Shown here in pieces: positions 33,743 through 54,615 of a stretch of DNA of 64,000 nucleotides. Source of the stretch: Urbifossiella limnaea (GTDB lineage: Bacteria; Planctomycetota; Planctomycetia; Gemmatales; Gemmataceae); assembly GCF_007747215.1 (NCBI RefSeq), contig NZ_CP036273.1, forward strand, positions 2,650,322 through 2,714,321. The letters are read 5' to 3'. Each line of letters opens with the position of its first letter. Position 1 is the first letter of the stretch. The translations under genes and the position numbers were made by a program. The notes beneath the pieces are model-generated. The model saw nothing but the letters and a program-made list of their open reading frames with translations, made no database searches and was not told the origin of the DNA.

Positions 33743-36528
<2,786 letters not shown>

Positions 36529-36532
<4 letters not shown>

Positions 36533-37947: not shown

Positions 37948-38883
37948 TCAGGTGTACAGGGTGCCGGTGTTCAGCACCGGCTGCGGCGTGCTGTGGCCGC
38001 ACAGCACCACCAGCAGGTTGCTCACCATCGCCGCCCGCCGCTCGCCGTCCAGCTCGACCACCTTCGACTGCTCCAACTGCTCCAGCGCGTGCTGCACGAT
38101 ACCGACGGCCCCGGCCACGATCTGCGCCCGCGCCGCCACGATCGCCCCGGCCTGCTGCCGCTGCAACATCGCGGCCGCGATCTCCGGGGCATACGCCAGG
38201 TAGCTGATCCGCGCCTCGATCATCTCCACCCCGGCCGGGGCCATCCGCGCCTGGATGTCCTGCTTCAGCTGCAGCGCCACCTCCTCGATGTGGCCGCGGA
38301 GCGAGTGCGACGCCTCCGCCGGGGCGTCGTAGTAGTAGCGGCTCGCCAGCGCCCGCAGGGCCGCGTCCGCCTGCGTCTCGACGTAGCCCTCGTAGCTGTC
38401 CACGTTGAACACCGCGCCGGCCGCGTTCGTCACCTTCCACACCACCACCGCGGCGATCTCGATCGGCGTACCGTCGGCGTCGTTCACCTTCAGCGGCTGC
38501 CGCCGCTGCGTCGCGGCCGCGGTCACGTTCCCGGAGGCGTCCTTCTTCTCCTCGGTCCGCTGCACGCCGGTCTCGAACGTCCGCACCCGCAGGCTCACCC
38601 GCGTCCGCCAGTAGAACGGGTTGCCGTAAAAGAACCCGACCTCCCGGATGGTGCCGACGTAGGTGCCGAACAGTTGCACGACGCGGGCCTGGTTCGGCCC
38701 GTTCACGACGAACCCGAACAGGCTCACGAGCCACATCAAACCCAGCGGCACGATGACCCAGATCAGCAGCGGCTCCCGCCACTTGGCCGCCAGCGCGATC
38801 AGCCCGATGATGCCGCCCAGCAGCGCGAGCACCCAGGCCAGCCCCATCCATCCCGACCCCAGCCGAAGTTCGCGGTCGTCCAC
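37948..38883 (-). CDS. SPFH/Band 7 membrane protein
   Basis: This 311-residue protein has two close membrane helices (about residues 15-35 and 40-60), then [20 protein letters not shown], the first strand of the SPFH domain. The [10 protein letters not shown] core and a long helix ending in [27 protein letters not shown] follow; the last stretch is typical of stomatin/prohibitin-like proteins. SPFH proteins build oligomeric scaffolds in membrane microdomains. GTG at 38881-38883 is chosen because AGGGGGA lies just upstream; longer upstream frames look non-coding. It is the first gene of a two-gene unit with the RHH protein. Confidence 0.88.
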
Positions 38884-38910
38884 GACGCATCCCCCTGATT
38901 GCGGAGTGAT

Positions 38911-38916
38911 ATCATA
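38911..38916 (-). promoter_or_regulatory. Possible -10 element of the SPFH/RHH operon
   Basis: Read on the minus strand this is TATGAT, 27 bp before the GTG start, in a short AT-rich patch. No good -35 is seen at the usual distance. Confidence 0.35.
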
Positions 38917-39036
38917 TTGAAATCTTACCCGCTGCTGTGGTGTTCGTCCTGCACTCGGCCGCATTTTCGGAAACGGCCCGGAATCGAACGGGGTGGCAGG
39001 GCCGGTTTCTGATACCCGGTAAAAGCGCACCGGCGT

Positions 39037-39139: not shown

Positions 39140-42037
39140 ATGTCCGCCAGGTGCCCCCACTGCGGGGCCGGGCTCGCGCCCAAAGACTTGAAGCCCGGCC
39201 GCTATGCCCCCAAGTGCCTGAAGTGTCAGACGGCGTTCGTCCTCCACGTCCAGTGGGCGACGTACCCCGACGCCGCCGCGATGGCCGTCGCCCAGGACCC
39301 GCCGCTCGTACCCGTTAAGGCGACCGACCCCACCACCACCGGCGCGTTCACCGAGCCGGAAGCCGTGAGCCCGGCGGCCCGCCAACCCTCGAAGTCGGTC
39401 GTCGTCGGTGGCGCGATGCCGAGCCCGGGTGCGACCGGCGACTTCACCGAGCCCGACGGCCCCCGCGAGATGTCACCGCCCGCCGGCGTGGCGGAGCGCA
39501 CCGGCGAATTCACCGACTCGCCCGAAACCGGCGGCGCGACCGGCGAGTTCACGGAGGCCGACGCCCCGGCAGCGCGCGGCGTTCCCGACCGGACCGACGC
39601 CCTGGCCACCGGCGACTTCACGGCCGCGCCCGGGGGTACGGACAACGTCGACTTCAGCGTCGGCCCGAAGCCGGTGCTGACGCCGAAGGTGAAGCCGAAG
39701 CTGATCGCGGCCAAGTCCGGAGACGCCAGCGAGGTCCTCGGTGACGCCGACGCGCCGGCCCGCCTCGGCGGCTACGAGGTGCTGCGGGTACTCGGCAGGG
39801 GCGGGATGGGAGCCGTGCTCCTGGGCCGGCAGATCTCGCTCGACCGCAAGGTGGCGCTCAAAGTGATGCACCCGAAAGTGGCGCAGAACCCCAGCTTTGT
39901 GGCCCGGTTCACCCGCGAGGCGTACGCCGCGGCCCAGCTGACGCACCACAACGTCGTGCAGGTCTACGACATCGGCGAGGACCGTGGGCGGCACTTCTTC
40001 AGCATGGAGTTCGTCAACGGCCAGTCGCTCGGCGAGCGGCTCAAGGAGGAGGGGAAACTCTCGCCGGAGGCCGCGGTCGGCCTAATCCTGCAGGCGGCGC
40101 GCGGGCTGCGGTACGGGCACAAGCAGGGGATGGTCCACCGCGACATCAAGCCCGACAACCTGATGGTGAACGACGAGGGCGTCGTGAAGGTGGCCGACCT
40201 GGGCCTCGTAAAGCTGAGCAGCGGCGACGTTCCGTCACAGGCCGGGTCGCCGGCCGGCGACGACGACGACGACGGCATCACCCAACTCACCCACGCCGGC
40301 GCCGTGATGGGTACCCCGGCGTACATGGCGCCGGAGCAGGGGAAGGACAGCGGCACCGTGGACCAGCGGGCCGACGTGTACTCGCTCGGCTGTACCCTCT
40401 ACGTGCTGCTCACCGGCAAGCCTCCGTTCGAGGGCAAGACGGCGCTCGAGATCATCACCAAGCACCAGACGCAGGCAGTGGTCCCGCCCGAGGTGGTGGT
40501 GAAGCGCGTGCCGAAGGCGCTGAGCGCGATCCTGCTGAAGATGATGGCGAAGAAGCCGGCGGACCGCTACGCCTCGATGGACGAGGTGGTCGCCGCTCTG
40601 GAAGGCTTCCTCGGCGTCGAGCGAGGCGGCACGTTTAATCCGAAGGAGTCCCAGGCCGACGAACTGGAGAAGTTCTGCTGCCAGTACAACGTCCGCGGCA
40701 AGGGGAAGCTCAAGGCCGTCGCCGCACTGGCGTTCGCGGCGGCGTGCGGCCTCGGCGTCGTCGGCGCGGGCCTGGCCGGGATGCCGGGGCTCGCAGGCGG
40801 CATCCTCGGGTTGCTGGTGATGACGCCGCTGGCGTACTTCGTCACGCACGGGGTACTGTGCGGCAACGTCGTGTTCACCCGCGCCCGGGTGCTCGTGTTC
40901 GGCATGGGCTTCACCGACTGGCTGATGGTGGTCGGCGGCGGGCTGCTGTTCCTGGCGACGCTCTACCTGTTCGGCCTGTTGTGGAGCTGGATCGCCTTCG
41001 CGGTCGCGGCGGCGGCGCTGGCGGCGGGGCTGTGGTACGCCGCCGACCGGGCGGCCGCGACGGCCCAGAAGGAGCCGCTGGACGACGCCCGCAGCCTGTT
41101 ACGGTCGCTGCGGCTGCAGGGGCTCGACGAGGAGGCGCTGCGGCAGTTCGTGTGCAAGTACGCCGGGCCGAACTGGGAGCCGTTTTACGAGGGGTTGTTC
41201 GGGTACGAGGCGAAGTTGGCCGCGCGGGCGTACCGCAAGGGCGACACCGGCGAGCCGTGGACGAAGCAGGGCACCTGGCGCGAGCCGGTGGTACAGGCGC
41301 TCGACGCCCGGCTCGAAGCCCGGCGGCTGGCGCGGGAGCGGAAGCACTTGCAGCGGATCGAGGCGAAGGCCCTGGAGGCCGAGGGCGTGAGCAAGGCCGA
41401 GGCGAAGGCCAAGGCGGCGGAGCTGGCCGAGGGGATGGTGGAGCAGGCGGCCGAGGCGACGCAGGCCCGCAAGGAAGGGAAGGAGGTCAGCGTCCGCGAG
41501 ATGGTCGCCGCCGCGAAGGAGCGCCGCCGGCCGAACCCGGGCAAGAACATCGCCGGCAAGCCCCTCCGGAGTATGGGGCCGAAGTACTTCCTCAACGCGG
41601 TGCTGGGCCAGCGGACGCGGTTCGTGCTGGGCGCCGCGGTGTTCGCCGCCGGCCTGCTGTGGATGAGCCAGAACGGCCTGCTGAGCAAGGACAACAACGT
41701 CCTGCAGAAGCTGACGGCGTTCGACTTCGCGGGGGCCGGCACGGCGCTGGACAAGGCGGCCGGGAAGCCGCTGCAGTTGGTCGGGTTGCCGGCCGAGCTG
41801 GTGAAGCCGCTGAGCGGCTACCCGGCGCCCGTGACTGGGTTCCTGTTGATGATGACGGGGGTCGTTTGCTTCGGCTGGCGGCCGAGCGCGGCGGCGCTAC
41901 CGGGCGCGGCGCTGGCACTGCTCGGGCCGTCGCTGCTACACGGCGCGGGCGTCGAACTGCCGATCAGCCCGGAGGCGGTGTGTCTGGCCGCGGGGGCGGT
42001 ACTGATCGCCGTCGGCGGGTGGTTGCTGCGGAGTTAG
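39140..42037 (+). CDS. Membrane Ser/Thr protein kinase with zinc ribbon and TGxFT repeats
   Basis: This is a 965-residue protein. Residues 1-35 form a CPHC/CLKC zinc ribbon. Residues 60-165 are disordered and hold five T-G-x-F-T repeats (67-71, 99-103, 121-125, 134-138, 157-161). The Hanks kinase domain spans 211-470: glycine loop GRGGMGAV, K241, HRDIKPDN (333-340), DLG at 353, and GTPAYMAPEQ (391-400), with an acidic DDDDD insertion in the activation segment. The remaining half has several membrane helices (about 530-650, 830-850, 890-965) around a charged helical part. All catalytic residues are present. It is followed after 106 bp by the FtsK-kinase operon, which it may regulate. Confidence 0.92.
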   Translation: MSARCPHCGAGLAPKDLKPGRYAPKCLKCQTAFVLHVQWATYPDAAAMAVAQDPPLVPVKATDPTTTGAFTEPEAVSPAARQPSKSVVVGGAMPSPGATGDFTEPDGPREMSPPAGVAERTGEFTDSPETGGATGEFTEADAPAARGVPDRTDALATGDFTAAPGGTDNVDFSVGPKPVLTPKVKPKLIAAKSGDASEVLGDADAPARLGGYEVLRVLGRGGMGAVLLGRQISLDRKVALKVMHPKVAQNPSFVARFTREAYAAAQLTHHNVVQVYDIGEDRGRHFFSMEFVNGQSLGERLKEEGKLSPEAAVGLILQAARGLRYGHKQGMVHRDIKPDNLMVNDEGVVKVADLGLVKLSSGDVPSQAGSPAGDDDDDGITQLTHAGAVMGTPAYMAPEQGKDSGTVDQRADVYSLGCTLYVLLTGKPPFEGKTALEIITKHQTQAVVPPEVVVKRVPKALSAILLKMMAKKPADRYASMDEVVAALEGFLGVERGGTFNPKESQADELEKFCCQYNVRGKGKLKAVAALAFAAACGLGVVGAGLAGMPGLAGGILGLLVMTPLAYFVTHGVLCGNVVFTRARVLVFGMGFTDWLMVVGGGLLFLATLYLFGLLWSWIAFAVAAAALAAGLWYAADRAAATAQKEPLDDARSLLRSLRLQGLDEEALRQFVCKYAGPNWEPFYEGLFGYEAKLAARAYRKGDTGEPWTKQGTWREPVVQALDARLEARRLARERKHLQRIEAKALEAEGVSKAEAKAKAAELAEGMVEQAAEATQARKEGKEVSVREMVAAAKERRRPNPGKNIAGKPLRSMGPKYFLNAVLGQRTRFVLGAAVFAAGLLWMSQNGLLSKDNNVLQKLTAFDFAGAGTALDKAAGKPLQLVGLPAELVKPLSGYPAPVTGFLLMMTGVVCFGWRPSAAALPGAALALLGPSLLHGAGVELPISPEAVCLAAGAVLIAVGGWLLRS

Positions 42038-42143: not shown

Positions 42144-42416
42144 ATGTCGCAGGCGATCGTCGACCCCGGCGAACTCCGCCGGTTTGCAGCGAACCTGAAG
42201 CGGTTCAACGCCGACCTGCAGGCCGACTCGGCCGGCCTTCACAGCCAGCTCGTCGCCCTCGGCGACTCGTGGCGCGACCAGGAACACGAGCGCTTCAAGC
42301 AGGAGTTCGAGGAAGTCGTCCGGACCCTGGAGCGCTTCCTCGACCTGTCCGGCGAGTACATCCCGTTTCTCCTCCGCAAGGCCGAGCGGATCGAGGAATA
42401 CCTGTCGCAGCGGTAA
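42144..42416 (+). CDS. WXG100-like small helical protein
   Basis: This 90-residue protein is made of two helices broken at ALGDSWRDQEHERF (residues 34-47), in the place where WXG100/ESAT-6 proteins carry W-x-G; here it reads W-R-D. The C-terminal helix ends YIPFLLRKAERIEEYLSQR. ESAT-6-like proteins are secreted by, or are structural partners of, FtsK/EccC-type ATPases. That fits the operon, whose last gene encodes such an ATPase. GGAG precedes the ATG. No signal peptide is present, as usual for WXG100 proteins. Confidence 0.8.
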   Translation: MSQAIVDPGELRRFAANLKRFNADLQADSAGLHSQLVALGDSWRDQEHERFKQEFEEVVRTLERFLDLSGEYIPFLLRKAERIEEYLSQR

Positions 42417-42422
42417 CGCACC

Positions 42423-42962
42423 ATGTCCGCGGACGTGAGATCGATCGCCGCGCTGCGCGACTGGTACGCCGCCCTCGCCGGCTACGGCGAGAGCCTGGCC
42501 GAGTCGCTGGCCGGCGTCGAACTGGAGCTCCGCCGGGGCTTCGACTGGCTCGACGAGCAACTCGGCCGCTGGCAGAAGGCGGTCCGCGACTGCGAGGACG
42601 AGGTGGTACAGGCGAAGGCCGAGCTGTCGGCCCGCAAGTTCACCGGCTGGGACGGCCGCGAGCCGGACACGACCGTTCAGGAGCGGGCGCTGCGTCGGGC
42701 GAAGGCGCGGCTCGAATACGCCGAGGATCAGGTGCGGGTCGTACGGTCGTGGATCGGCCGGCTGCCGAAGCTGATCGACGAGATGTACCGCGGCCCGGCG
42801 AACCGTCTCGGCGGGTTCCTCGAAGCCGACCTGCCGCGCGGCCTCGCCGCCCTCGGCCGGCAGGTCGAGACGCTGGAGACGTACGCGGGCCTGCGGACCG
42901 ACTTCGCCCCCGCCGCCGCCCCGCCGGCACCCCCGCCCCCGCCGCCGGAGGCCGCCCCGTGA
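42423..42962 (+). CDS. Coiled-coil protein of the FtsK-kinase operon
   Basis: This 179-residue protein has heptad-rich helices over residues 1-145 (for example LRRGFDWLDEQLGRWQKAV, EDEVVQAKAELSARKF, LEYAEDQVRVVRSWIGR) and a proline-rich tail (160-179). It starts 6 bp after the WXG100-like gene, and its TGA overlaps the GTG of the next gene. The tryptophan-containing helices could pack with the WXG100-like neighbour. I know no named family. Its position argues for a structural or substrate role with the ATPase. Confidence 0.72.
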   Translation: MSADVRSIAALRDWYAALAGYGESLAESLAGVELELRRGFDWLDEQLGRWQKAVRDCEDEVVQAKAELSARKFTGWDGREPDTTVQERALRRAKARLEYAEDQVRVVRSWIGRLPKLIDEMYRGPANRLGGFLEADLPRGLAALGRQVETLETYAGLRTDFAPAAAPPAPPPPPPEAAP

Positions 42963-43186
42963 GGTTCGGCACCACCCGCAGCCAGGTGTACGACGCCCAG
43001 AAGACGGCGCAGGCCCACTGGCTCGCCGTCACCGACGACTGGAACGACGCCGCCCGCCGCGACCACGACGACACCGTGGTGTCACCACTGGACGCCGGCG
43101 TGAGCGAGGCGCTGCGGGCGATCGACCAGCTGAGCGTGCTGTTCACCCAGATTCGCGGCGAGTGCGAGTACCCGGGGAACCTGTGA
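42959..43186 (+). CDS. Small helical protein of the FtsK-kinase operon
   Basis: This 75-residue protein starts with GTG overlapping the previous stop. It has helices around TAQAHWLAVTDDWNDAARRD (residues 16-35) and VSEALRAIDQLSVLFTQIRGEC (about 48-69). The DDWND segment again recalls the tryptophan turn of WXG100-like proteins. Its TGA overlaps the GTG of the large ATPase gene. It is likely made in step with the ATPase, and its partner or substrate. Confidence 0.72.
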   Translation: MRFGTTRSQVYDAQKTAQAHWLAVTDDWNDAARRDHDDTVVSPLDAGVSEALRAIDQLSVLFTQIRGECEYPGNL

Positions 43187-46100
43187 GCCCTTCACCATCA
43201 CCCGACGAGGGCACGGTCGTCCTCCCGGCCGCCGCCGCCCTCCGCTCCGCCGCGGCGGCCGACGCCACGCCCGCCGTGGCCGTGCCCGGGTTCGAGCTAC
43301 TGGAGGTGCTCAGCCATGGCGGCATGGGCGTCGTCTACCGCGCCCGCGAGACGGCCCTGGACCGCGTCGTGGCGCTGAAGATGATCGCCCCGGCGGCGCT
43401 GGCCATGCCGGACGTGCGCGAGCGGTTCGAGCGCGAGGCCCGCGCCGCCGCCCGGCTCCAGCACCCGAACGTCGTCGCCCTGTACCACACCGGGCTCGAC
43501 GCCCCCTGCCCGTTCCTCGTGCTGGAGTACGTGCCCGGGTTCGACCTCGTGCGACTGGTGCGCGAGCGCGGCTCGCTGCCGTGGCGGGAGGCCGTGGAGT
43601 ACGCCCGCCTGGCAGCCCAAGGGCTGCGGCACGTCCACGAGTGCGGCCTCGTCCACCGCGACGTGAAGCCATCGAACGTCATGGTCGTCCCCGCCGACGG
43701 CGCGGGGCCGGCGAGCGTCAAGCTCCTCGACCTCGGGGTGGCCCGCCTGGTGCTTCCGGCCTCGCACCCGTCCGACTCCGCCCTGACGGAAGCGGGCGTG
43801 TTCCTCGGCACGCCGGAGTACGTGGCCCCGGAGCAGGCCGAAGACCCGCGCCGGGCCGACGCCCGGTCCGACCTCTACGGCCTCGGGGCCACGCTGTACT
43901 TCCTGCTCAGCGGGGCGCCGCCGTTCTCCGGGCAGACGCCGCTCGAGGCCGTCCGCCGCGCCGCCACCGACCCGCGCCCGTCGCTCCGCGGCCGCCGGCC
44001 GGACGTGCCCGCGGCGCTGGACGTCGTCGTCCGCCGCCTCCTCGCCGCCGACCCGGCCCGGCGGTTCGCGTCGGCCGCGGACGTGGCCGACGCGCTGGGC
44101 CGCGTCCTCCGGGGCGAGCCGCTGCCGCCGGAACTGTCCGACCCGACCGCCGTCCATCGCCCCACGGGAACCTCCCGCATGGCCGCGAACCAGTACGACC
44201 GTTTACGTACGGCGCTGGCCCGCCTGGCCGACGCCGCGAAGGCCCGCGCCGCCGCCGAGGCCGCCGCCGCCGCCGCGTTCCGCGAGGCGAGCGACCGTGC
44301 CGACCGCGAACTCGGCCGGGCCAAGAAGTCGCTCGCCGCCGCCCGCGAGAAGGAACAGGCGGCCATCGAGGAGAACTACACCCTCGCCGTCACCGACCTG
44401 AACGGGCGGGCCGACGCCGAGCTGTACGCGGCCACCCGCACCCGCGACGAGCGGCTCACGTCGCTGTCGCTGCGGTACACTTCCGCGGAGCAGAAGGGGC
44501 GGACCGAGTACCAGGACAAGCTGTGGGCGCTCGACTCCGTGCTCGAGGGTTCGCTGAAGCGGGCGGCCGATCAGAAGGAGTCGCTCGGTCGAAAGGCCGC
44601 CGCCGCGGAGGAGCAGGTGGCCGGCCTGTGGGCCGAGGCCGGGCCGCTGGTCGAGAAGGCCGGCACCTCCCGCGAGGCGGTGAGCGGCGCGGCCGCCGCC
44701 GCGGCGACCGACGACGACCCCATCACCCGCGTGCAGAAGGCCATCGCCGCCGCCGAAGACGCGATCGGGACGCTGCGGAAGGACGCGGGCGGCAAGTTGT
44801 TCGTCCTACTCGGCAGCACCCGGCGCCGGCTGCTCGCCGAGGCCGAGGCCGTGGGCGCGCGGCTCGGCGAGGCGGAGGCAGCGGTCGCCGAGTTGAAGCG
44901 GTTCGCAGCCGCCGAGTACGCCGCGGAGACCGAACGGGCGCGCGAGAAGCACGCCCGGAAGCGCCGCGAGGCACAGGAGCACTACGAACCGCTGCTCGCC
45001 ACGCAGAAGGAGCAGTACGAGGCGGAGCGGGCGCGGATCGGCGCGGAGTTCGAGGCGGCCGCGACCGCGGTCCGGAGCAAGCGCGGCGTCGAGGGCGCGA
45101 CGACGGAGAGCGACTACAAGCAAGGCCGCCGCCTCTCCGCGGCGCGGAATAAGGCCGAGCTGAAGGCGGCCGAGGAGACGCACGAGGACAAGATCGGCTA
45201 CGCGACCGAGGCCCGCGACGCCGCGTGGGAACGGCTGTCGGCCGCGTGGCACGGCATCGCCGTCGAAGCGACGACGACGCTGATCGCCCTCCGCGCCGAG
45301 GCCGCCGCCGACTTCCCCGACTGGGCGACGGTCGCCGGCGGGCGTGCGCTGCCCACGACGGTCCCCGGCGGCATCCGCTACGGCGTCATGGCCGTGGACC
45401 CGCACCTGCTCCCCGACGGCGTCTCGGCCGACGCCCGGCTCGCGCCGCCCCCCGACCTCGCGGGACCGACGCCGGCGTTCCTGCCGTTCCCCGACCGCTG
45501 CTCCGTCGTGCTGAAGGCCCGCGACGACGGCCGCGCCGCGGCGGTCGCGGCGCTCCAGGCGATGATGCTGCGGTTCCTCACCGGCCTGCCGCCGGGAAAG
45601 GTGCGCTTCACCATCGTCGATCCCGTCGGCCTCGGCGACAACTTCGCGTCGTTCATGCACCTCGCCGACCACGACGAGAAGCTGGTGACCGGCCGCATCT
45701 GGACCGAGCCGCGCGAGATCGAGGCGCGGCTGACGGACCTGACGGACCACGTCGCCAGCGTGATCCAGAAGTACCTGCGGAACCAGTACAAGAGCATCGA
45801 GGAGTACAACCGCGTGGCCGGCGAGGTGGCCGAGCCGTACCGCGTGCTCGTGGTCGCCAACTTCCCCGCGAACTTCAGCCCCGAGGCGGCGAAGCGGCTC
45901 GTGAGCATCGCGCAGAGCGGCCCGTCGTGCGGCGTGTGCGTGCTCGTCGGCGTGGACGCGCGGGCGGCCATGCCGCGCGATTTTGTGCTGTCCGACCTGG
46001 AGGCGCCGAGCCTCGTGCTGAACTGGAAGGACGGCCGGTTCAGCCCCAAGGAGCCGGCCCTCGCCCCGTTCCCGCTGACGGTGGACGCCCCGCCCGACGC

Positions 46101-47904
46101 CGCGACGGTGGCCCAACTGGTGCGCCGCGTCGGGCAGGCGAGCAAGGACGCGGTCCGCGTCGAGGTGCCGTTCGAGTACATCGCCCCGAAGCCGGACGAG
46201 GTGTGGACGAAGAGTGCGGCGAAGGGCTTTGACGTGCCCGTCGGCCGGGCCGGGGCGACGCGCCGGCAGGCGTTCGTGCTCGGCCGCGGCACCGCGCAGC
46301 ACGCGCTCGTCGCCGGCAAGACGGGCTCCGGCAAGTCCACGCTGCTGCACGCCCTCATCACGAACCTGGCGCTCAACTATAGCCCGGACGAGGCCGAACT
46401 GTACCTCATCGACTTCAAGGAGGGGGTCGAGTTCCAGTGGTACGCGACGTACCAGCTGCCGCACGCCCGGGTCGTGGCCATCCAGAGCGAGCGCGAGTTC
46501 GGGCTGAGCGTGCTCCAGCGGCTCGACGGCATCCTCCGCGAGCGCGGCGAGCGCTTCCGCGACGCGGGCGTGAACGACCTCGCCGGCTACCGCGAGTTCT
46601 TGAAGGGGCAGGCGACGTGCCCGCGAATCCTGCTCGTGGTCGACGAGTTCCAGCAGTTCTTCGTCGAGGACGACAAGCTGGCCCAGGAGGCGGCACTGCT
46701 CCTCGACCGGCTCGTCCGCCAGGGCCGCGCGTTCGGGTTGCACGTGCTGCTCGGCTCGCAGACGCTGGGCGGTGCGTACTCGCTGGCGCGGAGCACCATC
46801 GACCAGATGGCCGTCCGCGTCGCACTCCAGTGCTCGGACGCCGACGCTCAGCTGATCCTCAGCAAGGACAACAACGCCGCCCGGCTGCTGAGCCGGCCCG
46901 GCGAGGCGATCTACAACGACCAGAACGGGCTCGTCGAGGGGAACGACCCGTTCCAGGTGGTGTGGCTGTCGGAGGAGAAGCGCGAGAGCGTGTTGCGCGA
47001 GCTGGGCCGGCGCGCGGCCGGGAAGTACCCGCCGCCGCTGGTGTTCGAGGGGAACAGCGACGCCGACCCGGCCCGCAACCCGGCCCTGGCCCGCGTGCTG
47101 GCCGCCGAGACGTGGGCGGAGCCGAAGGCCCCCGCGGCGTGGCTCGGCGACCCGGTGGCGATCAAGGAGCCGACCGTCGCCGTGTTCCGCCCCCAAGGGT
47201 CGGCGAACCTGTTGCTGATCGGCCAGAACGAAGACGCCGCCCGCGGCCTGTTCGCCGCCGCGCTGCTGGGGCTCGCGGGGCAGATCGCGCCGGCCGGCAC
47301 ACCCGTCTTCACCCTGCTCGACGGCACGCCGGACGACGCCGACGACGCCGAGACGCTGCGCCGGCTCGCCGCGAAGGTGCCCGGTCACGCCCGCGCCCCG
47401 GACCGCCCCGCGCTGCCGGCGGCGATCGCCGAACTCGCCGCGGAGGTGGAGCGGCGAGCGAAGGGGGAGGGCGGCCGCGCCCCGCGGTTCCTGTTCGTGT
47501 TCGGCGTCCACCGGTTCCGCGAGTTGCGGAAGGCCGAAGACGATTACTCGTTCAGCCGCCGCGGCGCCGAGCGCGAGCCGAGCCCGGCCGAGCGGTTCGC
47601 CGCGCTGCTGAAGGACGGCCCCGGCGTCGGCGTTCACGTGGTGGCGTGGTGCGACTCGTTGACGAACCTGAACCGCGCGTTCGACCGGTCGCTGCTCCGC
47701 GAGTTCGGGATGCGGGTGCTGTTCCAGATGAGCCCGACCGACAGTAGCACGCTGATGGACAGCCCGGCGGCGTCGCGGCTCGGCCGGCACCGGGCGCTGT
47801 TCCTCCAGGAAGAACAGGAGCGGCCGGAGAAGTTCCGCCCGTACGGCGTACCCGAGGCCGGGTGGGTCGACGCGGCTGTGGTTGCCGTCGGGAAGAAGAA
47901 ATAA
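43183..47904 (+). CDS. Ser/Thr kinase - coiled coil - FtsK/SpoIIIE (EccC-like) ATPase fusion
   Basis: This is a 1573-residue protein. Residues 36-310 are a Hanks kinase with SHGGMG (44-49), K66, HRDVKPSN (158-165), DLG (183-185) and APE (215-217), all catalytic residues present. Residues about 335-740 are an alanine- and charge-rich coiled coil. From about 745 three ATPase-like modules follow. The first has no P-loop but keeps a YRVLVVANFP strand. The second is a full FtsK domain with Walker A GKTGSGKS (1045-1052), Walker B RILLVVDEF (D1154/E1155) and a GSQTLGG sensor segment. The third lacks GKS. This three-module plan resembles EccC of type VII secretion. No membrane helix is obvious. GTG overlaps the upstream TGA. 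Confidence 0.93.
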   Translation: MSPSPSPDEGTVVLPAAAALRSAAAADATPAVAVPGFELLEVLSHGGMGVVYRARETALDRVVALKMIAPAALAMPDVRERFEREARAAARLQHPNVVALYHTGLDAPCPFLVLEYVPGFDLVRLVRERGSLPWREAVEYARLAAQGLRHVHECGLVHRDVKPSNVMVVPADGAGPASVKLLDLGVARLVLPASHPSDSALTEAGVFLGTPEYVAPEQAEDPRRADARSDLYGLGATLYFLLSGAPPFSGQTPLEAVRRAATDPRPSLRGRRPDVPAALDVVVRRLLAADPARRFASAADVADALGRVLRGEPLPPELSDPTAVHRPTGTSRMAANQYDRLRTALARLADAAKARAAAEAAAAAAFREASDRADRELGRAKKSLAAAREKEQAAIEENYTLAVTDLNGRADAELYAATRTRDERLTSLSLRYTSAEQKGRTEYQDKLWALDSVLEGSLKRAADQKESLGRKAAAAEEQVAGLWAEAGPLVEKAGTSREAVSGAAAAAATDDDPITRVQKAIAAAEDAIGTLRKDAGGKLFVLLGSTRRRLLAEAEAVGARLGEAEAAVAELKRFAAAEYAAETERAREKHARKRREAQEHYEPLLATQKEQYEAERARIGAEFEAAATAVRSKRGVEGATTESDYKQGRRLSAARNKAELKAAEETHEDKIGYATEARDAAWERLSAAWHGIAVEATTTLIALRAEAAADFPDWATVAGGRALPTTVPGGIRYGVMAVDPHLLPDGVSADARLAPPPDLAGPTPAFLPFPDRCSVVLKARDDGRAAAVAALQAMMLRFLTGLPPGKVRFTIVDPVGLGDNFASFMHLADHDEKLVTGRIWTEPREIEARLTDLTDHVASVIQKYLRNQYKSIEEYNRVAGEVAEPYRVLVVANFPANFSPEAAKRLVSIAQSGPSCGVCVLVGVDARAAMPRDFVLSDLEAPSLVLNWKDGRFSPKEPALAPFPLTVDAPPDAATVAQLVRRVGQASKDAVRVEVPFEYIAPKPDEVWTKSAAKGFDVPVGRAGATRRQAFVLGRGTAQHALVAGKTGSGKSTLLHALITNLALNYSPDEAELYLIDFKEGVEFQWYATYQLPHARVVAIQSEREFGLSVLQRLDGILRERGERFRDAGVNDLAGYREFLKGQATCPRILLVVDEFQQFFVEDDKLAQEAALLLDRLVRQGRAFGLHVLLGSQTLGGAYSLARSTIDQMAVRVALQCSDADAQLILSKDNNAARLLSRPGEAIYNDQNGLVEGNDPFQVVWLSEEKRESVLRELGRRAAGKYPPPLVFEGNSDADPARNPALARVLAAETWAEPKAPAAWLGDPVAIKEPTVAVFRPQGSANLLLIGQNEDAARGLFAAALLGLAGQIAPAGTPVFTLLDGTPDDADDAETLRRLAAKVPGHARAPDRPALPAAIAELAAEVERRAKGEGGRAPRFLFVFGVHRFRELRKAEDDYSFSRRGAEREPSPAERFAALLKDGPGVGVHVVAWCDSLTNLNRAFDRSLLREFGMRVLFQMSPTDSSTLMDSPAASRLGRHRALFLQEEQERPEKFRPYGVPEAGWVDAAVVAVGKKK

Positions 47905-48025: not shown

Positions 48026-49393
48026 ATGCCTTCCGACCAACTCCCGCCCGGCCCCCGCGGCAGTTCCTGGCTCGGCGGCAGCCTCCGCGACTTCACCGCC
48101 CGCCGGCTCGACTTCTTCCTCGACGTGGCCCGGGACTACGGCCCCCTCGCCAGCTTCCGCTTCGGCCCGCGGCGGATGTTCCTGGCGTCCGACCCGGCAC
48201 TCATCGAGCAGGTCCTGGTGACCGACGCCAAGCATTACATCAAGCACTTCGGCGCCCGCATGTACAAGCCTGTGCTCGGCAACGGCCTGGTCACCAGCGA
48301 AGGCGAGTTCTGGCTCCGCCAGCGCCGCCTCAGTCAGCCCGCGTTCCTGAAGCAGCGCGTGCACTCGTACGCCCCCGCGATGGCCGAACTGACGCGGCGG
48401 ATGCTCGCCGATTGGCGGCCGGGGAAGTGGGTGGACGTGCAGTACGAGTTCAGCGGCCTCACCAGCGCGATCGCCCTCAAGACGCTGTTCGGCCTCGAAA
48501 GCACTGAGGACCGGGCCACGTTCGTCGAGGCACTGCGGGAGGCGTTCGACCTGATGAGCGCCCGGTTCCGCACCGTGCTGGCGGTGCCGCGCTGGGTGCC
48601 GACGCCGGCCAACCGCAAGCTGAAGCGCGCCATCCGCCACCTCGACACCGTCATGGACGGGTTCATCGCCGCGGGGAAGAAGCGCGCCGCCGAGCGCGAA
48701 GGGCAGGGGAGCACGGCCGGCGAGGCGGTCGATCTGCTGACGCGGCTCCTCGCCGCGCGCGACGAGGACGGCTCGGCGATGACGCCGCGGCAACTCCGCG
48801 ACGAGGCCATGACGCTGTACCTCGCCGGCCACGAAACGACGGCGCTGACGCTGAGCTGGGCGTGGCTGTTGCTGGCCCAAAACCCCGCGGCCGAGGACCG
48901 GCTCGTCGCTGAGTGGAAGGCCGTTCTCGGCGGCCGCTCGCCGACGCCCGACGACCTGCCGAACCTGCCGTACACGGACGCCGTGATCGCCGAGGCGATG
49001 CGCGTCTACCCGCCGGTTTACCTCATCGGCCGCGAGGCGACGAAGGAGTTGGAACTCGGCGGCTACCGGGTGAAGAAGGGGTACACAATCTTCATGAGCC
49101 AGTGGGTCAACCACCGCGACCCGGCGTACTTCCCGGACCCGGGGGCGTTCAAGCCGGAGCGCTGGCTGGACGGGCTGGCGAAGCGGATTCCGAAGTACGC
49201 GTACTACCCGTTCGGCGGCGGCCCGCGGGTGTGCATCGGCAACACGTTCGCGCTGATGGAGGCGGCGATCCTCCTGGCGACGGTCGGCCAGCGATACCGG
49301 TTCACGCTCGACCCCGCGGCGGTCATCGACTTCGACCCGCAGATCACGCTGCTGCCGAAGTACGGCATCCCGGCGACGCTGGCCGCGCGCTGA
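48026..49393 (+). CDS. Cytochrome P450
   Basis: This 455-residue soluble P450 monooxygenase shows the I-helix LAGHETTALTLSW, the ExxR of EAMRVYPPV, the PERW segment (FKPERWLDG), and the heme loop FGGGPRVCIGNTFALMEA with the axial cysteine C403. The N-terminus (DQLPPGPRGSSWLGG) has no membrane anchor. It resembles the fatty-acid/terpene group of bacterial P450s, but the substrate cannot be read from sequence. No ferredoxin or reductase gene is adjacent. No good Shine-Dalgarno site is seen; the ATG follows the inverted repeat directly. Confidence 0.95.
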   Translation: MPSDQLPPGPRGSSWLGGSLRDFTARRLDFFLDVARDYGPLASFRFGPRRMFLASDPALIEQVLVTDAKHYIKHFGARMYKPVLGNGLVTSEGEFWLRQRRLSQPAFLKQRVHSYAPAMAELTRRMLADWRPGKWVDVQYEFSGLTSAIALKTLFGLESTEDRATFVEALREAFDLMSARFRTVLAVPRWVPTPANRKLKRAIRHLDTVMDGFIAAGKKRAAEREGQGSTAGEAVDLLTRLLAARDEDGSAMTPRQLRDEAMTLYLAGHETTALTLSWAWLLLAQNPAAEDRLVAEWKAVLGGRSPTPDDLPNLPYTDAVIAEAMRVYPPVYLIGREATKELELGGYRVKKGYTIFMSQWVNHRDPAYFPDPGAFKPERWLDGLAKRIPKYAYYPFGGGPRVCIGNTFALMEAAILLATVGQRYRFTLDPAAVIDFDPQITLLPKYGIPATLAAR

Positions 49394-49399
49394 CGTGTG

Positions 49400-52345
49400 T
49401 CACAGTTCCGCGGGGCACACCGTCTCGGCCTCGGAGCGGTCGGCGAAGCCGAGGTGCCAGCCGTCGGCCGGCGGCGGGGCGAACTCGGCCAGTCCCGCCT
49501 CGATCCTCGCCAGCTCCCGCGCCAACTCCGCGCACCGGGAGGCCGCCCCGCTCAGCTCGCCGCGCGTGCCGATGTCCTCCAGCGCCCGCGCCGCCTCGGT
49601 GGCGCCGGGCTGGCTGAAGAACGCCACCATTCCCTTGACGGTGTGGGCCGCGTCCCGGACGCCGTCGGCGTCGCCGTTGCCAATCGCGGCCCGGAGCGCG
49701 GCCATCTGCGTGTTGCAGTCCTGGTAGAAGACGCCGACCAACTGGCGGAGCACGTCGCGGTTGCCGCCGACCCGTTCGAGCACCGTCGTGCGGTCGAACG
49801 TCGCGTCGGCCGGCGTCCGGACGTCGTTCGTGTCCTGCCGGTGCCGCGCGTTTGTGTCCTCGGCGCCCGACTCGGCGGGCACCGCGACGCGCCGCAGTAC
49901 CGCGTGCAGGTCGTCGTCGCGGACCGGTTTCGAGACGTAATCGTCCATCCCGGCGTTGAGGCACTCCTCGCGGGTGCCGGACATGGCGTGCGCGGTGAGG
50001 GCCACGATCGGCATTCGGCTGCGGCCGCCGGCCTCGGAGCGGCGGACGGCCGCAGCCAGCTCGAAGCCACTCATGTCCGGCATCTGCAAGTCGGTGAACA
50101 TCAAATCGAATGAGCGGTCGGCGAGGGCCGTGAGCGCCTCACGGCCGTCGGCGGTGACGGTGACGCTGTGGCCCCACCGCTCCAGCTTCCTCGCCGTTAC
50201 CAGCTGGTTGAACCGGTTGTCCTCCACCACCAGAACCCGCAACCCGGTCGGACCGGCCGGCGGCGTCACGCGCGGCGCCGGCGTCGGTACGCCCCCGGTG
50301 AGCTGCGTCGGGTCGACGGCGAGCTGAAGCACACGGGCCAGGTCGACCCGGCGGACCGGCTTCCGCAGGTGGGCGACGCCGAGCGTCCGACAGCGCTCCA
50401 CGTCCCGCGGCAGGTCGGCCGAGGAGAGCAGCACCACCACCGACCGTGCGAGGCGGCGGGCGACGGCCTGCTCGGCGAGCACGAAGCCGTCCGGCTCGGG
50501 GAGGGTGGCGTCGACCAGCAGCAGGGGAAGCGGCGTGCCCGCGGCCGCTGCGGCTTCCAGAGCTGCCAGCGCGGACGGCGTGTCGTCCGCGGTCGTCGGC
50601 TGGAAGTTGAGCCGCTCCAGCATACCGGCCAGGGCGCGCTGCGTCGTGAGGTTGTCCTCGGCCACCAGGACCGGTCCGCCCTCGGTCAGGTAGAAGTCGG
50701 ACAAGGACAGTGACGCGTGCGAGTGGCTCGGCACCCCGAACCGGGCGGTGAAGTGGAACGCACTGCCGCGGCCGACGGTGCTCTCGGCCCACACCTCGCC
50801 GCCCATCAGCCGAACGAGGTGCGCCGAGATGGTGAGGCCGAGGCCGCTGCCGCCGTACTTCCGCGAGGTGCCGCCGTCGGCCTGCGTGAACGGCTCGAAG
50901 ACGGCTTGCAGCTTGTCCGACGGGATGCCGATGCCGGTGTCCACGACGCTGACCAGCAGGTTCGCGACGCCGGCGGACCGCTCGCCGACGCGGACGCGGA
51001 CGAACACCTCGCCGGCGTGCGTGAACTTGATGGCGTTGCCGACGAGGTTGACCACCACCTGACGCAGCCGGCCGGCGTCGCCGACGAGCACGTCGGGCAC
51101 GTCGGCCGGGATGTCGCAGCCGAGTTCGAGCCCCTTCGTGTGAGCCCGTAGGGCCAGACCTTGCAGCGTGTCGTCGAGCACGGCGCGGAGGTCGAAGTCG
51201 GCCGGGTCGAGGTCGAACTTGCCGGCTTCGATCTTTGACAGGTCGAGGAGGTCGTTGATGACGCCGAGCAGCGCCGTGGCCGACTCGCCGACGATGCCGA
51301 GGCACTCTCGCTGCTCGCCGGTCAGCCGACCGCCCTCGAGCACGAGTTCGGTCATCCCCATGATGGCGTTCATCGGGGTGCGGATTTCGTGGCTGACGTT
51401 GGCCAGGAACTCACTCTTGGCCCGGTTCGCGGCCTCGGCCGTGGCCCGCGCCTTCTCCACCGGGGTGAGGTCGTCGAACGTCGCCAGCGCGCCGCGGCAG
51501 CTGCCGTCGTCGGCGAGGATGGGCGTGGAGTTGACCGAGAGCGTCTTCCCCTCGCCGGCCCGGAGGCCGAGGACGTGCCCGGTCTGCGGGGCGGCGTCGC
51601 GCAGCACTTTGACCCACGGGTGCTCCGCCTCGGAGATCGGCACCGCCCCCGCGGACCACGGCAGGTCGGACGCCCGGCGGCCGCGCAGGTCGTCGGCCGG
51701 CACGCCGACCGCTCGGCCGAAGGCGTCGTTGGCCAGGGCGATGACGCCGTGCCGGTCCAACACTACGACGCCTTCGGAGAGTGTGTTCAGTGTCGCCTTG
51801 ACGCGGTCGGGTACCACGCGGGCCTCGGCCAAATCGATCTTGCGCAGCACGGTCCTCAGGTAGACCGCGGTGGCGGCGAACCAGCCGACCGAGCAGAACG
51901 CCAGGAGTGGAAGCATCGACCCGCCGGCGTACCGCCACGCGCCCGAGAACGGCAGCGGCCGGCACGCCACCTCGACGCGCGCCCACGCGCTGCCGTCCGC
52001 CTTCGGAACCTCGGCCTGTAAGTGGGTGGGCGTCGCCGTGTCGGTCGCGTCGGCCCAGTGCTGGGTGTGCCCGCCGGTGTCGGCGACGAGGCGCCCGTCG
52101 GCGTTCCGGATGCCGATCGACAGAACCTCGGGGCTGCGGCGGGCAACCGCTCGGGCGAACGACTCGGCGGCGGCGGGCGACTCGCCGCGGTACGACAGGA
52201 CGGCGCACTCGACCGCGACGGCCTCGCACACGGCCTGCCGGCGGGCGAGCTCGGCCGCGTCCGGGTCCGCGAGCACGCCGACGTTCCGCGCCAGGAACAG
52301 CACGCAGAGGAGGAGGCTGACGAGGCCGAAGCAGACGCGATTCAT
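49400..52345 (-). CDS. Hybrid sensor histidine kinase (PAS-HisKA-HATPase-REC-REC-HPt)
   Basis: This 981-residue protein has membrane helices at residues 5-23 and 143-163 enclosing a periplasmic sensor of about 120 residues. A PAS domain follows (about 185-300). HisKA has H319 in [11 protein letters not shown], and HATPase has the N-box ([13 protein letters not shown]) with DTGIGIP and GGSGLGL. Receiver 1 has D612, receiver 2 has D752 in [11 protein letters not shown], and a C-terminal HPt domain has H901 in AAHTVKG. This is the full BarA-type phosphorelay in one chain, with every phospho-site present. It starts 23 bp after the cadherin-like gene on the same strand. An HD-GYP regulator is encoded divergently nearby. 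Confidence 0.94.
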
Positions 52346-52368
52346 TGCGGGAAGCTCGGGGTGCGCGG

Positions 52369-54615
52369 TCAGCCGACCATCGCCTGCAGGGAGTCGTCCG
52401 GGCCGCCGTCGCGGGGCCGCCTGGCGTCGCGCTCCCATGCGAAGATGACGTCCAGCGGGTCGAACCTCCGCATCACCGCCGGGCGAGCCAGCAGGGCGCT
52501 GAGGAACCAGTACACGGCCCGCGTGTTCAGTAGCACCATCCCGGCGACCGCCACGGTACCCGACACGACGATGGAGTCGGCGGTGGCCCGCTCTGCCGCT
52601 TCGGCCCGGAGTTCGTCGCGGACGCGGTCCAGAGGCGCGAGCAGCGTCGCGGGCAGGTTCACCGCCGCTTGTGGCGTCGTGATCGCAGGCGTGATCGGCA
52701 CCGGCGCCGTCGCCGGAACCGTGGGCGGCAACGCCACGGCGGCCGCCGGTGCCGACGGTTCCGGCGCCGTGGGCACCGGTTGGGGTTGCGTGGCGGGGGA
52801 CGGCTGCGGCGCCGGCGCTGGTGCCTCGGGCAGTACCGGAGCGTCGCCGGCGGCGTACACACGACCCGCGTCTGCCGCGGTCGGCGTGCCTGCCGGCTGG
52901 GAGTTCCCGGTCGGCGTGCCGGACGAGACGGCGGGCACCGGACTGACGGTTCCCCCGGGAGCGCCACCGAGCGGGCTATCGCCGTCGGAAGAGTCCGAGG
53001 CTCTCGGCGCGACCGAGTCGGGCGGCGTGGCAGCAATCGTCGGCCCGGCCGTGCCGGTCGGCGACGGTACCGGTGGCAAGAGATCGGGTGTCGGCGGGGG
53101 TTCGGGCGTGGGCGGGTTCGCTACCGTTACCGTCACCTGTACCAGCCCCGAGCGGAGCTGACCGTCGGTGACGAGGTAGGTGAACGTATCAGTCCCGTGG
53201 AACCCGGCGTCCGGCGTGTACGTCATGGACCCGTCGGCCGCGACCGTTACAGTCCCGTGCGCGCCGCCGGCGACCAACTCGGCAGCCAGCACGTCGCCGT
53301 CGGGGTCGGAGTCGTTCGCCAGGACGGTCGCGGCCGAGACCGTGACCGGCGTACCGGCGACGGTGGTCGCGGTGTCCACCCCGCCGACCGGTGGCCGGTT
53401 GGTACTGTGGACGAAGATCCGCACCCTTGTGCCGCCGGTGACGCCGCCGCCGTCCGCCGCCGAGTAGCCGAACGAGTCGGTCCCGGCGTACCCGACGTCG
53501 GGCGTGTACGTGAACGAGCCGTCGGGGTCGAAGGTCAGCGTGCCGTGGCCTGGGTCGCTGTTGAGAACGGCCGTGAGTGTCCCGATTCCCGAAGGCGTGT
53601 CGTTGGCCAACACGCCGGGTGCGGTCACCCTCAGGGTGCCGCCGGCGGCGACGGCGTAGTCGTCGTCCACCGCAGCCGGCCGGGCGACGGCGCCAACGAC
53701 GTTCAGCGTGACGGTGACCGGCGCCGGGCTCATGCTGCCGTCGGTCACGCGGTACGTGAACGAGGTCGTGCCGGACCAGCCGGCGGGTGGCGTGTAGGTG
53801 AACGCGCCGCCGGTGGTCAGCACGAGTGTGCCGACGGCGGGGGCGGTCTCCAAAAGTGCCGTCAGGGTGTCGCCGTCCGGGTCGGTATCGTTGCCGAGGA
53901 GGCCGGGGGCGCCTGCCGAGAGAGTTGTGTCCTCCGCCACCGTGTAAGCGTCGGGCGACGCCACCGGTGCCCGGTTCGCGGCGGCGACTGTCACGACCAC
54001 GGTCGCCGGGGCGGACGTGATGACGCCGTCGGTCACGACGTAGGTAAACGAGTCGGTGCCGGTGAAGGTCACGAACGCGGTGTACACGAACGAGCCGTCC
54101 GGGCTGAGGAGCAGCAGGCCGTTCGACGGCAGCGCCACGGCGGACGCGGTGAGTACCGCCCCGCCGGGGCTCAGGTCGTTCCCGAGAAGCCCCCCGGGAA
54201 CTCCGACCACCAGGTCGAGGGAAAGGACACTCGTGCGGACGGCCGTCGTGTAGGCGTCGTCCACGGCCGTCGGTGGGGTCGTGTCGACGGCCACGATCAG
54301 CGCAGCAGGCAAGGCCGGCGCGGCCGAGATCATCGCCCCGCCGCCCGCTCCCGAGGTGTCGAACGCGGCGAGGTACGTCACCTGCCCTAGGCCGCTCACG
54401 ACCAACGGCGCGGACGCGGCCGGGGCGGCCGTGACGGGGGCAGGTCGGGGGCTGAGAGTGGGGAGCGGGAAGTCCACGACCGCGAGCGGTAGCTGTCCGG
54501 CTACCGTCGCCGTGGTGACCGCGGCAGGCAGCGGGTCCAGGCTGGCGCTCGGCTGGACGCGGGACTCCAGAGCTTCGACGGCGAGCCGGCGGCGGACGGG
54601 GGGGACGTGGGTCAT
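52369..54615 (-). CDS. Cadherin-like tandem-repeat surface protein with C-terminal membrane helix
   Basis: This 748-residue protein begins [18 protein letters not shown], an LEPR/LEDR-type N-terminal signature of large planctomycete extracellular proteins. About four cadherin-like/tandem-95 repeats fill residues about 110-500 ([65 protein letters not shown]), each with calcium-binding DPDGD-type loops. A proline- and threonine-rich stalk (about 500-660) leads to a hydrophobic helix near 680-710 and a charged tail of about 38 residues. It fits a membrane-anchored adhesin with a cytoplasmic tail, and shares an operon with the hybrid histidine kinase. Confidence 0.85.

What the first reader, a model, noticed from the sequence alone, without database searches (positions are those of the whole stretch)
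42144..47904. Kinase-coiled coil-FtsK fusion with three small WXG100/coiled-coil partners: a candidate kinase-gated type VII-like translocase
Four genes overlap or nearly touch: a 90-residue WXG100-like protein, a 179-residue coiled-coil protein, a 75-residue helical protein and a 1573-residue protein. The last joins an intact Hanks kinase (K66, HRD, DLG, APE), about 400 residues of coiled coil and three FtsK/SpoIIIE-like modules, of which only the middle one keeps Walker A (1045-1052) and Walker B (1154-1155). EccC ATPases of type VII secretion have three such modules and work with WXG100 proteins, but a Ser/Thr kinase in the same chain is unusual. The inference is that phosphorylation gates the motor or its substrates. 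No EccB/D/E, mycosin or obvious membrane helix is present, so secretion is not assured; a DNA- or envelope-related motor remains possible.
Basis: partly seen in the sequence, partly recalled or inferred. Interest (0 to 1): 0.85.

Follow-up and report, generated by a model that had tools for sequence, protein, structure and literature searches.

The report
Kinase-fused WXG100 motor of planctomycetes
A planctomycete carries a four-gene machine resembling the motor core of type VII protein secretion, and in this genome and a few relatives the motor has a protein kinase joined to it; the four genes nearly always occur together in the planctomycetes sampled, but what they move is unknown.

Summary
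In detail: four tight genes, with the coordinates and motifs stated. WXG, coiled coil, small protein and FtsK behave as one set: of 294 planctomycete genomes 40 have this FtsK, 39 the WXG protein and 38 each of the other two, with none of the three in a genome lacking the FtsK, even where the genes are far apart. The motor is EccC/EssC-like with one P-loop. The family was noted before (2012 footnote; 2024 CoCoNuT paper).

New here: (1) the kinase is an accessory, fused in 6 of 61 loci of the family and 0 of 35 outside, with catalytic motifs kept; (2) most planctomycete homologues have a predicted two-helix membrane hairpin inside the coiled coil, deleted in this genome and its sister, so 'no membrane helix' is a local loss; (3) no nuclease domain was found in 28 coiled-coil homologues, unlike a plasmid relative with a nuclease and immunity gene.

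Best reading: a WXG100-coupled translocase with optional phospho-control. Export and gating are inferred, not shown; a purely intracellular role stays a serious rival. New variant of a known kind.

The parts
42144..42416 (+). WXG100-family protein, 90 aa, motif WRD instead of WxG
   Evidence: Pfam PF06013 E 1.9e-8; alignment A1, 55-81% identity to the window over 27 other planctomycete rows; WRD in 55 of 55 (51 family loci and 4 others), and 15 WRD plus 9 WQD in 24 further loci; only PF06013 match over the cut-off in the genome, a second one scoring 12.8 of 27.3 bits
42423..42962 (+). coiled-coil protein CC179, predicted long two-helix hairpin plus Pro-rich tail
   Evidence: alignment A2; helices 99-164 and 177-250 of the 272-residue read-through model, mean pLDDT 74; no Pfam family at E 1e-3
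42959..43186 (+). small helical protein S75, 75 aa; M1, W21, W28 and D30 invariant in 25 rows; possibly WXG-like
   Evidence: alignment A3; 4-nt overlap with CC179 in 37 of 48 family loci where both are seen; profile link to WXG weak, 17.9%; no Pfam match
43183..47904 (+). kinase-coiled coil-FtsK/EccC-like ATPase, 1573 aa
43294..44070 (+). Hanks-type Ser/Thr kinase domain (residues 38-296)
   Evidence: Pfam Pkinase E 1.1e-39; motifs kept in the six fused copies where visible
44179..45282 (+). presumed coiled coil (residues 333-700); M333 corresponds to the start of kinase-less homologues
   Evidence: composition, alignments; no coiled-coil predictor was run
44782..44826 (+). place where most homologues have a predicted two-helix membrane hairpin, missing here and in sister genome G089
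   Evidence: hydropathy and alignment
45250..46149 (+). motor module 1, ATPase-like, no P-loop
   Evidence: model of residues 690-1573; EccC5 DUF domain Z 16.4 over model residues 13-300
46156..47019 (+). motor module 2 with the only P-loop; Walker A 46315-46341, Walker B 46642-46647
47038..47901 (+). motor module 3, ATPase-like, no P-loop
   Evidence: EssC D3 Z 17.7 over model residues 597-866
39140..42037 (+). UPK: Ser/Thr kinase with an N-terminal zinc-ribbon-like stretch and hydrophobic stretches, gene directly upstream; candidate accessory kinase
   Evidence: Pfam Pkinase E 2.1e-48, zinc ribbon only below cut-off; hydropathy; relatives over nearly the full length upstream in L080, L081, L091, L092 (in the last two about 1.3 kb further off), only its first ~37 residues in L072, L090, L093

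Best explanation
A minimal type VII-like machine. The FtsK protein is an EccC/EssC-type ATPase (hexamer inferred from the family) with one hydrolysing module, acting on or together with a WXG100 protein and two other helical proteins (CC179, S75) that work as one set. In most planctomycete homologues examined, the ATPase is predicted to be fixed in the cytoplasmic membrane by a two-helix hairpin with coiled coils on the cytoplasmic side, and it most likely moves the helical proteins, or something they chaperone, through or into the envelope. Phosphorylation is an optional control layer: a kinase joined to the ATPase N-terminus in a few lineages, a separate upstream kinase (UPK) in some others. 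In this genome the membrane hairpin is gone and both kinases are present, so membrane attachment, if needed, must come from another protein; UPK is a candidate. Shown by sequence: gene set, motor homology, single P-loop, intact kinase motifs, co-occurrence, hydrophobic hairpin in relatives and its absence here. Inferred: membrane insertion, translocation, what is moved, phospho-control, UPK's role.
For: The top eight Foldseek matches of the motor model are EccC/EssC (E 5.6e-31 to 6.5e-16), then FtsK. NCBIfam EccCa/EccCb match the active module at E 5.9e-30 and 6.3e-29, far below the family cut-offs. WXG100 in the operon. Presence in 294 genomes of at least 80% completeness: FtsK 40, WXG 39, CC179 38, S75 38, none of the three in a genome lacking the FtsK at the thresholds used; in G191, one contig, the four genes are over 400 kb apart yet all present. 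Hairpin: N-part hydropathy of 1.9 or more in 52 of 61 homologues against 2 of 61 for the motor part; 32 of 35 outside the family. Kinase motifs kept in all fused copies where visible. In fused loci L072, L090 and L093 the upstream kinase gene is reduced to a short zinc-ribbon-like protein, which would fit interchangeable kinases. Known systems tie kinase-fold proteins to this ATPase: YukC pseudokinase binds the YukB N-terminus (PMC9600267, passages); TscD/TsdD kinases in T7SSc/d (PMC11217815, passages).
Against: No membrane or secretion component was found as a conserved neighbour within the flanks fetched, and no EccB or YukD match passes its cut-off in the genome (best YukD-like 20.0 of 27 bits). 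The ATPase here and in G089 has no membrane hairpin, yet the set is kept, and the five plasmid relatives read also lack it, so a membrane-bound ATPase is not needed for the family to be kept. The WXG protein has WRD. The whole-length EccC match has TM-scores of only 0.36-0.37, and by Z the best rows are the DNA motor FtsK (29.9) ahead of EccC (27.6). The kinase is absent from most homologues. The window and L092 keep both kinases, which does not fit simple interchange.
Confidence: 0.5

Rival explanations
1. An intracellular (non-secretory) stress or defence machine: the ATPase remodels or assembles WXG/coiled-coil complexes in the cytosol, as may happen in the TerY-P/CoCoNuT-linked relatives, and the kinase is its sensor. 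The planctomycete version would have lost or replaced the nuclease part.
For: Caballeronia plasmid locus: vWA-WXG100-coiled-coil-like protein-two small genes-FtsK-DUF1887-vWA-PP2C-kinase-AAA; Helicobacter plasmid: WXG-WHH nuclease-SUKH immunity-small gene-FtsK; profile matches of WXG (E 1.1e-26, 1.1e-17) and FtsK (2e-164 to 2e-70) in a search of 43 proteins only; no membrane helix in these or in the window protein.
Against: No nuclease domain in 28 CC179 homologues scanned and no conserved immunity-like neighbour in the family; most planctomycete homologues carry a predicted membrane hairpin. PADLOC hits look like generic kinase or ATPase matches.
Confidence: 0.25
2. A type VII relative that has become a fixed, regulated housekeeping export or envelope-building function in planctomycetes, with the WXG protein as structural co-factor rather than cargo.
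For: One copy of each small protein per genome, present and absent together even when unlinked; only WXG100 over the cut-off in the genome, so no family of WXG-tagged effectors is seen; no nuclease domain.
Against: Patchy in the phylum (40 of 294) and, by my reading, only weak matches (E 4e-11 to 2e-7) in 19 of 95 family genomes, some of them incomplete; so not needed across the phylum.
Confidence: 0.15
3. A DNA or chromosome/division motor of the FtsK kind, with helical accessory proteins.
For: The best rows by Z are FtsK with DNA (29.9 over 273 residues).
Against: A separate FtsK-like frame exists in the genome (place 271859, 28% identity); Foldseek ranks EccC/EssC first; WXG100 partner.
Confidence: 0.07

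Closest known systems
Mobile WXG100 / YueA-like ATPase systems (Zhang 2012 PMC3482391 Table 1 footnote 6; Bell 2024 CoCoNuT paper PMC11090510 section 10; passages read)
   Same: Three ATPase modules with only the middle one active, N-terminal coiled coil, WXG100 partner, a coiled-coil protein and a second small helical protein; planctomycetes are named in the 2012 footnote.
   Different: The planctomycete sets seen here have one copy of each small protein per genome, no nuclease domain in 28 CC179 homologues, mostly a predicted membrane hairpin (said to be lacking in the CoCoNuT relatives), and in a few lineages a kinase fused to the ATPase.
Type VII secretion T7SSa/T7SSb (EccC / EssC)
   Same: EccC/EssC-like ATPase, WXG100 protein, predicted two-helix membrane segment before the motor in most homologues.
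   Different: No EccB or YukD over the cut-off and no other conserved neighbour; three modules where the 2024 survey gives four NTPase domains for EccC/EssC relatives; WRD motif; hairpin lost in this genome.
T7SSc / T7SSd with kinases TscD / TsdD (Garrett 2024 PMC11217815, passages)
   Same: Ser/Thr kinase genetically tied to a WXG100-EccC-like ATPase; UPK has a comparable kinase-plus-hydrophobic-segment layout.
   Different: Those kinases are separate proteins in Actinomycetota and Bacillota; here one is in the same chain as the ATPase, in Planctomycetota.
YukC/EssB pseudokinase of T7SSb (Tassinari 2022 PMC9600267, outline and passages)
   Same: A kinase-fold domain contacts the N-terminus of the ATPase.
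   Different: YukC cannot bind ATP and is a separate protein; its contact is thought independent of phosphorylation. Here the kinase keeps its catalytic motifs and is covalently joined.

Membership tests
Type VII secretion system (T7SSa/b) | EccC/EssC-type FtsK ATPase with tandem modules | tested here: met
   Foldseek top eight are EccC/EssC, E 5.6e-31 and down, TM 0.25-0.39 of the query; NCBIfam EccC models E 5.9e-30 and 6.3e-29, below the family cut-offs
Type VII secretion system (T7SSa/b) | ATPase is membrane-bound | tested here: not met
   window protein and sister L066 have no N-part stretch of 1.6 or more; 52 of 61 homologues have one of 1.9 or more, so not met here but predicted met in most of the family
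Type VII secretion system (T7SSa/b) | WXG100 protein encoded with the ATPase | tested here: met
   PF06013 over cut-off; present in 39 of 40 genomes with the FtsK
Type VII secretion system (T7SSa/b) | WxG motif in the turn | tested here: not met
   WRD in 55 of 55; WRD 15 and WQD 9 of 24 others
Type VII secretion system (T7SSa/b) | EccB (T7SSa) or YukD-type (T7SSb) component | tested here: not met
   no match over cut-off in the genome: EccB best 12.9 bits, YukD best 20.0 bits, cut-off 27 each; EccD, EccE, mycosin, EssA, EssB and EsaA were not searched for
Type VII secretion system (T7SSa/b) | secretion of the WXG100 protein | not testable with these tools
   needs fractionation
Mobile WXG100 / three-module YueA-like ATPase systems | three modules, only the middle one with a P-loop | tested here: met
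   (61 of 61; 35 of 35)
Mobile WXG100 / three-module YueA-like ATPase systems | N-terminal coiled coil on the ATPase | tested here: inconclusive
   composition and alignment fit, but no coiled-coil predictor or model of this part was run
Mobile WXG100 / three-module YueA-like ATPase systems | second WXG100-like protein without the motif | tested here: inconclusive
   S75 vs WXG profile comparison 17.9%; S75 not modelled
Mobile WXG100 / three-module YueA-like ATPase systems | coiled coil-nuclease with a partner gene | tested here: not met
   no Pfam nuclease in 28 CC179 homologues, window included; no conserved immunity-like neighbour
Mobile WXG100 / three-module YueA-like ATPase systems | mobile element | tested here: inconclusive
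   lies in the single 7.8 Mb contig and each small protein has one copy per genome; mobility genes were not looked for
Hanks-type Ser/Thr kinase (fused domain) | lysine, HRD, DFG-type and APE motifs | tested here: met
Hanks-type Ser/Thr kinase (fused domain) | phosphotransfer activity | not testable with these tools
   needs assay

The most novel reading that the evidence does not exclude
Planctomycetota have their own non-toxin type VII-like system of four mutually dependent proteins, membrane-anchored through a hairpin in the ATPase coiled coil, in which an active kinase has been joined to the ATPase N-terminus, the place where the YukC/EssB pseudokinase docks in Bacillota. In the lineage of this window the machine has shed its membrane hairpin and runs as a soluble, kinase-bearing motor.
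Probability: 0.3. Interest if true: 0.8.

Novelty: new variant of a known kind. Interest (0 to 1): 0.6.

Why it matters
Type VII secretion is described mainly in Actinomycetota and Bacillota. A four-protein relative in Planctomycetota, without a nuclease domain and with one copy of each small protein, would give a minimal set for asking what the ATPase and WXG100 proteins do by themselves. The kinase fusion is a natural link between phosphorylation and this ATPase, which other systems make with separate kinases or pseudokinases; and the natural loss of the membrane hairpin in two sister genomes offers a direct test of whether membrane anchoring is needed at all.

Tried and rejected
Tried without result or rejected: (a) kinase fusion as a core feature: rejected, 6 of 61 family loci and 0 of 35 FtsK frames outside. 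(b) A single clean origin of the fusion: not shown; the motor tree (29 proteins that I chose: the window's and 28 of the other 60 loci) needs at least 3 changes and the kinase tree (38 rows) at least 2, with standalone kinases of roughly 690-1070 aa open frame nested among the fused ones. (c) A fifth conserved partner: clustering of open frames within the fetched flanks of 65 loci gave no further family in more than 16 loci; kinase frames merge with the FtsK cluster there through the fused proteins, so kinase neighbours were judged. The 16- and 9-locus downstream families look like an FAD-type oxidoreductase and a terpene-cyclase-like protein by eye (no family search). (d) WXG-CC179 contact: the read-through chain gave two helical hairpins at mean pLDDT 74 and pTM 0.52 and no structural match at E 0.001 or better, so no claim. 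(e) S75 as a WXG relative: weak, 17.9%. (f) CC179 as a WXG relative: weak, 8.7%. (g) PADLOC hits look like generic kinase/ATPase matches. (h) Which EccC modules the three modules correspond to is unsettled: the whole-length alignment runs over D1-D3, module 1 alone matches the EccC5 DUF domain, and EccCa and EccCb models match the active module about equally. (i) Phage relatives of the motor: 191 records, none covering 80% of the query. (j) The window WXG finds only the same Caballeronia and Helicobacter plasmids. (k) CC179 and S75 in plasmid relatives: CC179 weak (best 4.6e-5), and the S75 profile hit the Caballeronia WXG protein (1.5e-6), not the small gene in S75's place; the WXG profile was not significant in Rhodococcus pseudokoreensis (0.014). 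Five plasmid records were read of 361 that matched the motor. (l) Literature, PMC open library only: among the listings seen, only Zhang 2012 ties planctomycetes to this ATPase; passages of PMC7159879 gave nothing on it; Anantharaman 2012, cited by the CoCoNuT paper, was not read.

Rows dropped or limits: thresholds were 1e-40, 1e-10, 1e-8 and 1e-3. G295 (fragmented) lacks WXG and CC179, G177 lacks CC179 and S75, G265 fell below the S75 threshold although sees it. The FtsK is not strictly single: G164 has two near-complete copies, one cut at a contig end, so its 'unlinked' set may be an assembly break. L096 and L103 are cut in the FtsK N-terminus and cannot be scored for the kinase; of the 35 outside frames L191, L192 and L194 are broken or short. 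15 of the 76 family genomes that I count as having the FtsK were not fetched. That the family is Gemmataceae is inferred from named relatives. The 61 proteins are not the 61 loci: they are those of 1000 aa or more and include four other Planctomycetota loci (L060, L062-L064). Of the 9 without a stretch of 1.9, six have none of 1.6 or more (window, L066, L098, L105, L107, L113), L103 is cut, and L106 and L115 are borderline (1.81, 1.87). L002 was left out of the kinase tree because L233 is the same place.
Full report
What is there. The window lies in a 7.8 Mb single-contig genome, a Gemmataceae-type planctomycete judging by its nearest named relatives. Four genes on the + strand, 42144-47904, nearly touch or overlap: a 90-aa WXG100 protein, a 179-aa coiled-coil protein (CC179), a 75-aa helical protein (S75) and a 1573-aa kinase-coiled coil-FtsK protein. 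A kinase gene with a zinc-ribbon-like start and hydrophobic stretches (UPK, 39140-42037) sits directly upstream.

The motor. Pfam finds FtsK_SpoIIIE in two stretches, best at 1020-1194. One P-loop occurs in each of 61 homologues and in each of 35 FtsK frames outside the family. The model of residues 690-1573 (mean pLDDT 82, pTM 0.63, 23 sequences) has EccC and EssC as its first eight Foldseek matches, though with low TM-scores (0.36-0.37 for EccC over three modules), so domain order fits better than their arrangement. By Z the first rows are FtsK (29.9 over 273 residues), then EccC (27.6 over 501) and TcpA (26.2 over 253). NCBIfam EccC models match the active module at E 5.9e-30 and 6.3e-29, below their cut-offs. 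Kinship with type VII ATPases is well supported; which of their modules are present is not settled.

The partners. I count 76 of 95 genomes of the window's family as having this FtsK (best E 1.6e-37 or better; the other 19 have 4e-11 to 2e-7) and fetched 60 besides the window's. In 47 of these 61 loci all three small genes lie upstream; CC179 and S75 overlap by 4 nt in 37 of 48. In 294 planctomycete genomes the FtsK is found in 40, WXG in 39, CC179 in 38 and S75 in 38, one copy each for the three small proteins, and none of these in a genome without the FtsK. Of 35 loci outside the family, 23 have all three neighbours, 3 have one, and 9 have none; all nine genomes of the last kind have WXG, CC179 and S75 elsewhere, though G164 may be an assembly break. 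In G191, a single contig, the four genes are over 400 kb apart. Three genomes of the same class without the FtsK, tested with looser thresholds, lacked WXG and CC179. Kinship of the genomes was not corrected for, but joint retention of unlinked genes is hard to explain other than by joint function.

The kinase. It is fused in 6 of 61 family loci (window, L070, L072, L090, L092, L093) and in none of 35 FtsK frames outside. The lysine motif is kept in 5 of 5 copies where the N-lobe is visible, HRD, D(L/M)G and (A/S)PE in 6 of 6 (read from the alignment). The kinase joins in front of residue 333, which is the start of kinase-less homologues. The window's nearest relative in the motor tree, G089, is unfused (100/99), and the fused label needs at least three changes there (29 rows). 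In the kinase tree all fused copies fall in one clade (100/100) together with standalone kinases, which are nested among them (38 rows). So either the same kinase type was joined more than once or it was lost many times. In L072, L090 and L093 the upstream UPK gene is reduced to a short protein like UPK's first ~37 residues, whereas the window and L092 keep both kinases and L070 is cut.

The membrane hairpin. Most homologues have hydrophobic stretches, typically two about 24 residues apart, in the middle of the coiled coil: at least one of mean hydropathy 1.9 or more in 52 of 61, against 2 of 61 in the motor part; 32 of 35 outside the family, the exceptions being broken or short frames; 0 of 5 plasmid relatives. 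The window and G089 lack this block in the alignment; four more proteins have none of 1.6 or more. The other five fused proteins keep it. So absence of a membrane helix is a local loss, not a property of the family. This is a hydropathy inference; no dedicated predictor was run.

Relatives elsewhere. Five plasmid homologues, in Caballeronia, two Rhodococcus, Deinococcus and Helicobacter, were read with their neighbours. By profile, in a search of 43 proteins, the FtsK (E 2e-164 to 2e-70) is related in all five and WXG in four (1.1e-26, 1.1e-17, 4.2e-13, 8.4e-8; 0.014 in the fifth); CC179 and S75 only weakly or not. There the protein in CC179's place can carry a nuclease: Helicobacter WHH domain E 1.1e-11, followed by a SUKH-type gene. 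Of 28 planctomycete CC179 proteins scanned, none has a nuclease and 3 have an Imm33-like domain.

What is known. [quoted passage not shown] Bell 2024 (PMC11090510, passages) describes the same layout with coiled coil, two WXG100 proteins and a coiled coil-nuclease between vWA genes, without membrane segments. Garrett 2024 (PMC11217815, passages) lists kinases, phosphatases and FHA proteins in new T7SS subtypes of Actinomycetota and Bacillota. Tassinari 2022 (PMC9600267, outline and passages) shows the YukC pseudokinase binding the ATPase N-terminus. The kinase fusion, the planctomycete quartet and its hairpin were not seen in the search listings.

How it most likely works. A WXG100-coupled ATPase machine, predicted membrane-anchored in most planctomycetes that have it, with phosphorylation as an optional control. 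Export is favoured by homology, the WXG100 partner and the hairpin; it is weakened by the loss of the hairpin here, the lack of EccB and YukD over their cut-offs and the WRD motif. The intracellular reading (rival 1) remains serious. Verdict: a new variant of a known kind, with a well-supported gene set and an unproven mechanism.

Noticed in passing
39140-42037: UPK kinase gene upstream; relatives over nearly the full length upstream in L080, L081, L091, L092, only a short zinc-ribbon-like protein in L072, L090, L093.
   Followed up: partly
G000:C1:2806614 (outside window), L233: Standalone kinase (715-aa open frame) in the same clade as the fused kinases.
   Followed up: partly
33854-36532: Hsp70-like protein with DUF3731.
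   Followed up: no
37948-39030, - strand: SPFH/Band 7 protein divergent from UPK.
   Followed up: no
48026-49393: Cytochrome P450 downstream of the FtsK gene.
   Followed up: no
49400-52438, - strand: Hybrid histidine kinase with receiver and Hpt domains.
   Followed up: no
L063 5327-6352: CC179 homologue with an Imm33-like domain, E 5.1e-7; 3 of 28 CC179 rows have it.
   Followed up: partly
L157: Caballeronia plasmid locus combining WXG100/FtsK with DUF1887, vWA, PP2C and kinase genes.
   Followed up: partly
L160: Helicobacter plasmid with WXG, WHH nuclease, SUKH-type gene, small gene and FtsK.
   Followed up: partly
whole genome: 123 matches to the fused protein in one genome, nearly all in its kinase part.
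   Followed up: no
G164: Two near-complete copies of the FtsK in one genome, one of them (L186) without the small genes beside it.
   Followed up: no
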